Source: Schizosaccharomyces osmophilus (taxonomy: Eukaryota; Ascomycota; Schizosaccharomycetes; Schizosaccharomycetales; Schizosaccharomycetaceae). Taken from it: DNA of 64,000 nt. The DNA is taken from positions 1,481,001 to 1,545,000 of the forward strand of contig NC_079240.1 of NCBI RefSeq assembly GCF_027921745.1. Direction: 5' to 3'. Shown here one piece after another: positions 10,971 through 44,904 of this stretch. The notes beneath the pieces are model-generated. The model saw only the letters and a program-made list of their open reading frames with translations. It had not been told where the DNA came from and did no database searches. Made by a program: the position numbers and the translations under genes. The number at the start of each line of letters is the position of its first letter. The stretch's first letter is position 1.

Positions 10971-11693
10971 GCGCTGTTACCATGATGAACACGAGCCAGA
11001 AGGCTCAAACAATAAACCCAGCTCTTTGAGCTGCTAAAAGAAAAGCAGCTAGGAAACGAAAAACACGTTCTGAACGACAGTCATAAGTATTCTTTCTGAA
11101 TGGCAATGTTCTCTCTTGTTGATTTTGTTTTTGTTTTTGTTTTGGCTTGCATCGAGGAGAGTCGAATGGAACTATATTAAATGTGTGTTTGGTAGGAAGG
11201 GTCCAGTTTAGCTTTTATGAACTAGCGCAATTCAAGTGTATCAATGGACGACCAACAGGTTTCTTTGGGATGTCGCTTTTGACTTTGCTAGCAACATCGG
11301 ACCATCAGCCCATTTTGTTTGCTTGATTCTCTTGCATATGGAATGTCATTTGATTTTTTTGTAATGTTTTTATCGTATAAAGGGTTTTGTACGATATTGG
11401 TACTTGTTGGGAACAGTCTGCTACGTGTACTTTTCGCAAAACAGTTGACTCGTTTCGAATAAGAACTTTTTCTTTTTTTTTCATCTGAAAATCAAATTTG
11501 CCTGTATATTTGAAAAAAAAATAAAGCAAAAAAAAGCAAAACGAAATTACCCAGGATCGAAGTAGCAGATTTTCGTTGTTTTTGGACTTTCAAACATCTG
11601 ACGCTGACGCTGACCATCCATTAATTTGTAGCTCGAAACGCAGATTCATCAGTTTCCTTCTTTCGACTTTTTCTTTTCATTGATTGTTTTCCC

Positions 11694-43571: not shown

Positions 43572-44749
43572 TGTGTAGAATACGCACACTAGAGAATATG
43601 TAAAAAAAAGAAAAGTTTTAGGCTGAAGAAGTAAAAGGAAGGATAATAAGTGTTTTTCAATACCTTTTCGATACCTTTTCGAAAAAAAAAAATGAGGGAC
43701 AAGATAAAATAGACTGCACTTGCACAATCAAGGAAAAAGGTGGAAGAGAAGAGAACCGACTATCTAAAGAAAACACACACAAAGATGTATTTCCTAAACA
43801 AAAGAAGAATTAAATATGAAAAAGACACCGAACAGACCCACGAAGGTTGACAAATAGGTTGGTTTGCTATCCTAACGGAGGCAAGTTCGCTTTTCCCCCG
43901 ATAAGACTGATGAATCAGAAAATCTGAATAATAAAATATAATAAATAAATAATGTTGCTACTCCTTTTTTCTTCCAGTACAAAAAAAGCCACCACTTAAG
44001 CCACGAATGAGTTATGAGGATTTAACTATGGTCCTTTGAAAACGAATTCCAAACTTCTGAAAAAGTCTTCTCACAACGACCTAAAAATAAAACAAGTTGA
44101 ATGAATAAGATGATAGATGATTGGACCTAGGAACGCAATGGGAAATTGACAAGCTGAGGCAACAAATGTAGCTAACCGCTCTCGACGAAGGCAATTTGCG
44201 AACCCACAACCGGGTTTCTATTAGATTTATCTTTGATTTTACCTGAATGGATGGATGATCTTTTAATTTTTGTTTTATTCCTAGTAGACGAAATATTCCT
44301 AAGGTCAATGCACTTTCGCCGGTTATGAAGTAGTCATGCACTTTGGTGTTACTACTTTGATTGCCATGCCTAAATGGATCGACGCTTGTTACTTATCTTG
44401 TACCTTTAATGAAGTATAAGGTGTTGTCGATCATCGGTTAATCAGCCGATCTTCTTTGTTTATGGAAATTTCAAAAACAAAAATAAAATGTAAATTTATA
44501 TAAATTCTCCTATATTCAATAGAGCTCATGCAACCAATGTGTGGGAGGTCTAAAAATCCAAATAAACCTTGTAAGCGCTCAAAGAACGAATTTCCTGTCA
44601 AAACCTAAGGAAGAAGATAAATTCAGGCAGTTGTTGATCTGCTTGAATTTTGTAATGCTTTCGTTTTCTTCTTTCTCTTTTCTTTCTCTATTTAGTGTAA
44701 ATATTGTACTCCTCTTATACGGCATTTAGTATTCCTTCATCAACAAAGG
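43572..44749. other. loz1 upstream region
   Basis: About 1.2 kb between the loz1 start and the tRNA relic. It contains the candidate Loz1-element cluster and otherwise AT-rich DNA. Spurious frames only. Confidence 0.6.
44374..44454. promoter_or_regulatory. Cluster of three candidate Loz1 response elements upstream of loz1
   Basis: The Loz1 site, as I recall it, is CGNMGATCNTY. Matches are TGTCGATCATC (44425-44435, plus), AGCCGATCTTC (44444-44454, plus) and CGTCGATCCAT (44374-44384, minus strand). Each differs at one position. They lie 800-880 bp upstream of the loz1 ATG. This suggests zinc-dependent autoregulation, which is inference. Confidence 0.45.
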
Positions 44750-44810
44750 GTACTGTGGTAGAACGGTTTAGCACTGCAAAAGGTTCTAGGTTCGTGTCAC
44801 TGTATGTACT
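44750..44810 (+). pseudogene. Shrunken tRNA-Ser relic in front of tRNA-iMet
   Basis: 61 nt ending 6 nt before the initiator tRNA. It aligns at its 5' side with the S. pombe tRNA-Ser of the known Ser-Met dimers (gt-actgtggtagaacggttta versus GTCACTATGTCCGAGTGGTTA). Its 3' side has the same 22-nt length from GGTTC to the end. About 21 nt of the anticodon/variable region are missing and the T stem does not pair, so it cannot make a tRNA. Yet 44756-44766 (TGGTAGAACGG) fits the A-box consensus and 44789-44799 (GGTTCGTGTCA) fits the B-box at 9 of 11. It may survive as the Pol III promoter for the Met half. Confidence 0.6.
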
Positions 44811-44816
44811 GAAAAG

Positions 44817-44888
44817 TGCGCGGTAGGAGAGTGGAACTCCGACGGGCTCATAACCCGTAGGTCCCAGGATCGAAACCTGGCCGCGCAA
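44817..44888 (+). tRNA. Initiator tRNA-Met (CAT)
   Basis: 72 nt. The acceptor stem TGCGCGG pairs with CCGCGCA, followed by discriminator A. The anticodon loop is CTCATAA with CAT. The anticodon stem has the initiator hallmark GGG:CCC pairs (ACGGG/CCCGT). The T loop reads ATCGAAA instead of TTCRANY, another eukaryotic initiator hallmark. The sequence appears identical or nearly so to the S. pombe initiator tRNA as I recall it. There is no intron. Confidence 0.97.
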
Positions 44889-44891
44889 TTC

Positions 44892-44904
44892 TTTTTTTAT
44901 TTTT
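44892..44904 (+). terminator. Pol III T-run terminator of tRNA-iMet
   Basis: Seven Ts (44892-44898) then A and five more Ts begin 3 nt after the tRNA 3' end. Confidence 0.9.

What the first reader, a model, noticed from the sequence alone, without database searches (positions are those of the whole stretch)
44750..44888. tRNA-Ser half decayed to a promoter-only relic in front of tRNA-iMet
In S. pombe, initiator tRNA-Met genes are known as the 3' halves of tRNA-Ser/tRNA-Met dimers (sup3, sup9, sup12), and the Met half depends on the Ser promoter. Here the Ser half has shrunk from about 82 to 61 nt and cannot fold as a tRNA. It still keeps an A-box that fits TRGYNNARNGG exactly, a 9/11 B-box, the same 3' length and a 6-nt spacer. 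If the tRNA is gone but the Pol III boxes are kept, this is a gene turned into an external promoter for the initiator tRNA. The alignment to S. pombe tRNA-Ser was done from memory.
Basis: partly seen in the sequence, partly recalled or inferred. Interest (0 to 1): 0.72.

Follow-up and report, generated by a model that had tools for sequence, protein, structure and literature searches.

The report
tRNA relic as initiator-tRNA promoter
In this fission yeast a worn-out tRNA gene that can no longer make a tRNA seems to be kept only as the switch that turns on the start-codon tRNA gene right behind it, and a second initiator tRNA gene in the same genome shows the same layout.

Summary
The genome is Schizosaccharomyces osmophilus CBS 15793. 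Its six initiator tRNA-Met (iMet) genes found here are identical: four follow an intact tRNA-Ser, and two (the window's R1 and R2 on C1) follow a relic matching no tRNA model. Both relics keep an A/B box pair scoring above iMet's own, with one geometry: exact TATA 40 nt before the A box (the modal position in 110 tRNA genes), a 22-nt A-B gap, the B box 28-29 nt before iMet, and no terminator in between. In simulated neutral decay box pairs this good survive in under 1% of equally decayed tRNAs. iMet's own pair is the weakest scored. Best reading: the relics are external type-2 Pol III promoters for iMet. A tRNA-Ser(UGA/CGA) origin is not supported for R1, which resembles tRNA-Thr(AGU), then Ala or Arg. 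Against function: the 22-nt gap is shorter than in all 112 tRNA genes measured (31-69), and a looser TATA profile does not favour R1's TATA. Expression and conservation between species could not be tested.

The parts
44716..44719 (+). TATA core of the presumed Pol III promoter, starting 40 nt before the relic's A box
   Evidence: -40 is the modal TATA start of 110 tRNA genes; R2 (L006) also has TATA at -40. A looser TATA matrix does not rank this site among its top six in 180 nt.
44741..44747 (+). CAACAAA, presumed transcription start region (CAA at -15 and -12 from the A box)
   Evidence: CAA starting at -16..-9 occurs in 70 of 110 tRNA genes.
44748..44812 (+). tRNA-derived relic R1 (approximate limits); most like tRNA-Thr(AGU)
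   Evidence: score 48.5 against shuffled best-of-set mean 33.8, P 0.002; no tRNA found.
44756..44766 (+). A box TGGTAGAACGG
44789..44799 (+). B box GGTTCGTGTCA, 22 nt after the A box, starting 28 nt before iMet
44810..44816 (+). Spacer TGAAAAG without a terminator; resembles the GAAAG before iMet in L002, L005 and L006
44817..44888 (+). Initiator tRNA-Met(CAT), same 72 nt in all six copies found
44892..44898 (+). T7 run, presumed Pol III terminator; the only T4 run from 44700 to 44900

Best explanation
The element is a decayed tRNA gene kept as an external (leader) type-2 RNA polymerase III promoter for the initiator tRNA. TFIIIC binds the relic's A and B boxes and places TFIIIB on the TATA near 44716. 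Pol III starts near 44741-44747, reads through the relic (no T4 run) and iMet, and stops at the T7 run 44892-44898. RNase P, or RNase MRP as reported for the S. pombe Ser-Met precursor, then frees the mature iMet 5' end and the relic part of the transcript is degraded. Shown here: the anatomy, its excess over chance, the same layout in a second relic, and the weakness of iMet's own boxes. Inferred: factor binding, start site, processing, and that iMet depends on it.
For: All six iMet genes found stand directly behind an A/B-box unit: four tRNA-Ser and two relics. Of 122 distinct other tRNA upstream regions none has a pair scoring >=20 and two (Asn behind another tRNA) score 15.1. Both relics have A at -61/-62, B at -28/-29 and a 22-nt gap. 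Exact TATA lies 40 nt before both A boxes, the mode of 110 tRNA genes; chance of a TATA in 8 positions is 0.031-0.049. None of the six iMet genes has an exact TATA at -44..-37 from its own A box. Neutral-decay simulation: the observed pair is reached in 0.7-0.9% (R1, Thr or Arg ancestor) and 0-0.4% (R2, six ancestor choices) of equally decayed tRNAs; R2 was not chosen for its boxes. iMet's own pair is the lowest of 33 leave-one-out rows, 14.6 against 23.8 for the next, and of the 72 genes (11.6 against 14.5). S. pombe precedent: the upstream tRNA-Ser drives iMet (PMC7721064 passage citing Hottinger-Werlen 1985).
Against: The 22-nt A-B gap lies outside the 31-69 range of all 112 tRNA genes measured and the 31-93 nt reported for S. 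cerevisiae (PMC5356446 passage). R1's and R2's A boxes score only 9.6 and 6.8, against 5.9 for iMet and 6.0-17.7 for the other rows. With a TATA matrix learned from 65 genes, R1's TATA is not among the six best sites in 180 nt, R2's is fifth (4.1), and a weak TATA-like site (2.5, between the 10th and 25th percentile of other genes) lies at the usual distance before the L006 iMet itself. The L006 iMet also has a CAA at -16 of its own. One S. pombe iMet gene, imt06, is described as stand-alone and strongly expressed (PMC9362929 passages). There are no expression or ChIP data and no second species.
Confidence: 0.65

Rival explanations
1. The relic is the decayed tRNA-Ser half of an ancestral Ser-Met dimer; function as in the best explanation.
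For: Four of the six iMet genes found follow tRNA-Ser. R2 ends in the same GAAAG as the Ser(UGA) dimers, R1 in the similar GAAAAG. R2 has weak similarity to Ser(GCU) (z 3.9) and Ser(UGA) (z 1.5).
Against: R1 is at shuffle level against Ser(UGA) and Ser(CGA) (z -0.2, 0.9) while Thr(AGU) reaches z 6.2. In simulation 334 of 344 equally decayed tRNAs with a top-score lead of at least 4 were assigned to the right origin; that reference set lacked Ala and some other isotypes.
Confidence: 0.12
2. The relic is a dead pseudogene; iMet is transcribed from its own internal boxes, and the surviving boxes are remnants of recent decay.
For: iMet genes of most eukaryotes work with a non-consensus B box (general knowledge); S. 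pombe imt06 is called stand-alone; the 22-nt gap is atypical; the L006 iMet has a weak TATA-like site and a CAA of its own.
Against: Neutral decay rarely leaves such a pair; the same layout occurs twice; no iMet gene has an exact TATA at the usual distance from its own A box and iMet's boxes are the weakest scored.
Confidence: 0.19
3. The relic is transcribed and its RNA itself has a role, for example as a tRNA-like processing guide for RNase P/MRP or as a small noncoding RNA.
For: It lies in the presumed precursor next to a junction like the one cut by RNase MRP in S. pombe Ser-Met precursors (PMC4234475 passages); R1 can form a GUAC-GUAC end stem.
Against: Folding energy is not notably better than shuffles (z -0.25 for R1, -1.22 for R2), and no Rfam family reaches its gathering score there.
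Confidence: 0.08
4. The boxes bind TFIIIC without Pol III, as an ETC/COC-type chromatin site.
For: TFIIIC sites with B boxes and no Pol III are described in fission yeast (PMC2040200 passage).
Against: TATA, start-like motif, A box and the adjacent iMet are in transcription register.
Confidence: 0.04

Closest known systems
S. pombe tRNA-Ser/tRNA-iMet dimers (sup9 in PMC9362929; the names sup3 and sup12 are recalled)
   Same: An upstream Pol III unit a few nt before iMet; the upstream promoter drives the downstream gene (PMC7721064 passage). S. osmophilus itself has four such dimers.
   Different: Here the upstream unit makes no tRNA, R1 looks non-Ser, and the A-B gap is shortened.
S. cerevisiae ZOD1 and YGR033C (derived from ancient tRNA-Ile and tRNA-Arg genes, still occupied by the Pol III machinery)
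   Same: A tRNA relic that keeps its promoter (PMC5356446 passage).
   Different: In the passage seen they are not described as driving a functional gene behind them.
RPR1 and SNR52 leader promoters of S. cerevisiae
   Same: A and B boxes lie in a 5' leader sequence (PMC5356446 passage).
   Different: There the product is RNase P RNA or a snoRNA; here it is a tRNA with weak boxes of its own.
S. [quoted passage not shown]
   Same: A tandem tRNA transcript (mentioned in PMC9362929).
   Different: Both halves are real tRNAs.

Membership tests
tRNA-Ser/iMet dimer | Upstream half is a tRNA-Ser gene | tested here: not met
   No tRNA detected; no excess similarity of R1 to Ser(UGA/CGA).
tRNA-Ser/iMet dimer | iMet a few nt downstream without an intervening terminator | tested here: met
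External (leader) type-2 Pol III promoter | A and B boxes upstream of the mature RNA, behind a TATA/start-like region | tested here: met
   Sequence layout only. That the leader is transcribed was not tested.
External (leader) type-2 Pol III promoter | A-B distance within the natural range | tested here: not met
   22 nt against 31-69 in 112 tRNA genes.
External (leader) type-2 Pol III promoter | TFIIIC occupancy and a transcript starting upstream of the boxes | not testable with these tools
   Needs ChIP and RNA 5'-end data.
tRNA relic with a working Pol III promoter (ZOD1-like) | Homology to a tRNA | tested here: met
   R1 P 0.002. For R2 only borderline, P 0.046.

The most novel reading that the evidence does not exclude
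In fission yeasts the initiator tRNA gene has lost a self-sufficient promoter. Every copy lives behind a TFIIIC unit, either a working tRNA or a tRNA worn down to a promoter with a constrained geometry (TATA - 40 - A - 22 - B - iMet), which uncouples iMet supply from co-production of tRNA-Ser. The supposedly stand-alone S. pombe imt06 would hide such a relic in its 5' flank; the ~300-bp flank cloned in PMC9362929 would have carried it.
Probability: 0.38. Interest if true: 0.75.

Novelty: new variant of a known kind. Interest (0 to 1): 0.6.

Why it matters
It would catch a gene in the act of becoming a regulatory element: a tRNA gene reduced to the promoter of its neighbour. It would make testable whether a tRNA with a poor internal promoter can live on a borrowed one, and how short the A-B distance may be once tRNA folding no longer sets it. 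It may also explain why the S. pombe iMet gene called stand-alone is so strongly expressed.

Tried and rejected
Rejected: chance boxes (one unrelated background place slightly exceeds R1's score). Rejected: Ser(UGA/CGA) origin for R1. R1's origin looked like Arg as well as Thr in the first sets, and Ala came close once Ala genes were added, so only 'tRNA, Thr-like, not Ser(UGA/CGA)' is claimed; no Trp, Tyr or further Leu types appear among the 37 labels. R1 against R2: no significant similarity (P 0.09), so a common ancestor of the relics is not shown. Neither relic has a DNA relative elsewhere in the genome by the search used. A 39-nt exact iMet pattern is absent from viral contigs and genome contigs, so no relatives were obtained. 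Two pattern searches for further tRNA types found nothing. Synteny in papers: 0 papers held two of six terms on sup12, loz1 and neighbours.

Full report
Identity. The window lies in a three-contig genome of 11,412,266 bases. C1 and C2 are 5,565,604 and 3,504,162 bases, exactly chromosomes 1 and 2 of Schizosaccharomyces osmophilus CBS 15793 in PMC10085805 (passages seen); C3 here is 2,342,500 against 2,346,755 in the paper. That paper annotated nuclear tRNAs with tRNAscan-SE (passage), which would not be expected to list a relic without a tRNA fold (inference).

What is there. iMet is at 44817-44888. The genome search gave six iMet places, and the six printed 72-nt genes are identical. Two follow intron-containing tRNA-Ser(UGA) and two tRNA-Ser(CGA); a DNA search with the Ser(UGA) sequence gave only these four places. 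The other two follow a relic: R1 in the window and R2 in L006 (C1:5457686-5457770). Neither relic gives an RF00005 match at E<=10, and a DNA search with each found only itself. Neither folds notably better than shuffles (z -0.25 and -1.22), while the Ser(UGA) unit does (z -3.55).

The boxes. With matrices from the genome's own tRNAs (27 sequences; iMet and 8 sequences with longer A boxes left out) the best A/B pair in the 120 nt before iMet scores 20.2 for R1 and 21.2 for R2, against 11.6 for iMet's own boxes; 0 of 2114 background windows reach either (maximum 19.6). A refit on 29 labels gives 22.1, 25.0 and 14.6, with 0 of 4226 background windows at or above either relic (maximum 18.9). In the leave-one-out table of 33 rows iMet is last, the next being 23.8; by the A box alone iMet (5.9) is no worse than Asp (6.0). 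That table leaves out types whose A box is longer than 11 nt, where all 72 genes were scored with the ungapped matrices, the lowest non-iMet score is 14.5. In 5650 windows from other loci one unrelated place scores 20.4 and one 19.5. Both relics have A at -61/-62, a 22-nt gap and B at -28/-29 from iMet. Of 122 distinct other tRNA upstream regions none scores >=20; two tRNA-Asn genes score 15.1, and in the sequences they directly follow another tRNA.

The core promoter. Fission-yeast tRNA genes carry a TATA centred at -30 (PMC2040200 passage). Aligned on the A box, 64 of 110 tRNA genes here have an exact TATA starting at -44..-37, with the mode at -40 (19 TATA starts). R1 and R2 both have TATA at -40, and CAA at -15/-12 and -13. 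Chance of a TATA in 8 positions is 0.031-0.049. None of the six iMet genes has an exact TATA at -44..-37 from its own A box. No T4 run lies between 16 nt before the relic A box and the iMet end in either unit. In the dimers the Ser A box has a TATA within -44..-37 in three of four units; L004 has one at -29 only. Against this, a matrix learned by EM from 65 genes does not list R1's TATA among its six best sites in 180 nt (its best is TAAATATT, 119 nt before iMet), puts R2's fifth (4.1), and gives the L006 iMet itself a weak TATA-like site (2.5; R1's iMet -0.4, the dimers' iMet -2.9; other genes' median 4.9). The L006 iMet also has a CAA 16 nt before its A box. So the start signals fit the relics better than iMet, clearly for exact TATA and less so for looser matches.

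Selection on the boxes. I let tRNAs decay neutrally in silico to the relics' own alignment scores. For R1 the observed pair was reached in 0.67% (Thr) and 0.87% (Arg) of 1500 runs each, and in 0.10% of 1006 if Ser(UGA). For R2 it was reached in 0 of 1500 (Asn), 0 of 22 (Leu), 0.07% of 1500 (Cys), 0 of 988 (Ser-UGA), 0.36% of 561 (Ser-GCU) and 0.13% of 1500 (all tRNAs). The decay model is simple, so these are rough figures.

Origin. Against 37 ARAGORN labels R1 is best matched by tRNA-Thr(AGU) (48.5, z 6.2; best-of-set P 0.002, the shuffles being compared with at most two sequences per label), then Ala(AGC) 44 (z 6.2), Arg(UCG) 43.5; Ser(CGA) 28 (z 0.9) and Ser(UGA) 24 (z -0.2). In a simulation with 35 labels, 364 of 400 R1-like relics were assigned correctly, 334 of 344 when the lead was at least 4; Ala was not yet in that set, and R1's lead over Ala is 4.5. 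If the ancestor was Thr, R1's A box is shifted in register; if Arg, it is in register and about 10 nt of the anticodon arm are lost (alignments). R2 cannot be assigned (P 0.046; 227 of 400 correct in simulation). The Ser(UGA/CGA) story is thus not supported for R1.

Against. The 22-nt gap is below all 112 tRNA genes measured (31-69) and below the 31-93 nt of S. cerevisiae (PMC5356446 passage). In tRNA genes the lower limit may reflect tRNA folding rather than TFIIIC (inference); that both relics have exactly 22, about one helical turn less than 32, is suggestive only. In S. pombe one of four iMet genes, imt06, is called stand-alone; its deletion lowers iMet by 44% and its plasmid copy gives more iMet than sup9-imt07 (PMC9362929 passages). 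Either iMet boxes suffice, or imt06 has a hidden upstream unit; its clone carried about 300 bp of 5' flank (passage). R2 lies beside an EMC3-family gene. From memory S. pombe emc3 is on chromosome II, as is imt06, and the window's neighbours (signal peptide peptidase, C2H2 factor, CCHC protein, DDX60-like helicase) recall a chromosome I block near loz1. These synteny remarks are recall, not tests.

Literature. Hottinger-Werlen 1985 is not held; its claim is taken from a passage and reference in PMC7721064. RNase MRP cutting the Ser-Met precursor is from passages of PMC4234475. Searches around a tRNA relic or upstream unit serving as promoter of a downstream tRNA listed no paper whose title or abstract start describes one; this covers open-licence papers only, and of each paper cited I saw passages, not the whole text.

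Verdict. A real feature: two initiator tRNA genes sit behind tRNA-like relics that keep a type-2 Pol III promoter layout. External promoter function is the best explanation (0.65), not proven. It is a new variant of known dimers and leader promoters.

Noticed in passing
L015, L016 (G000:C1 near 4860846 and C2 near 1012240): Intron-containing tRNA-Met (elongator type by inference) directly followed by tRNA-Asn(GTT) with a 6-nt spacer and no T-run: another tRNA dimer class. L019 has a similar pair, its first half labelled Phe(aaa) by ARAGORN.
   Followed up: partly
L006:1433-1504: Second promoter-like relic (R2) before an iMet gene, beside an EMC3-family gene.
   Followed up: yes
L052, L054, L055, L056: Four of the eight tRNA-Gln genes printed share the 3' trailer TCGAC(A/T)ACCGTA before the T-run; part of it could pair with the 5' acceptor strand GGTTGT.
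   Followed up: no
window 10978-11075: Box C/D snoRNA snR69 (RF00475, 66.9 bits).
   Followed up: no
L003 and L004: The two Ser(CGA)-iMet dimers share the spacer and the printed 3' flank although they lie about 2.7 Mb apart on C1, which suggests recent duplication or gene conversion.
   Followed up: no
L002 near 1801-1920 (strand of the match not recorded): An A/B-like pair scoring 20.4, a few hundred bases from the L002 iMet, with no tRNA called there.
   Followed up: no
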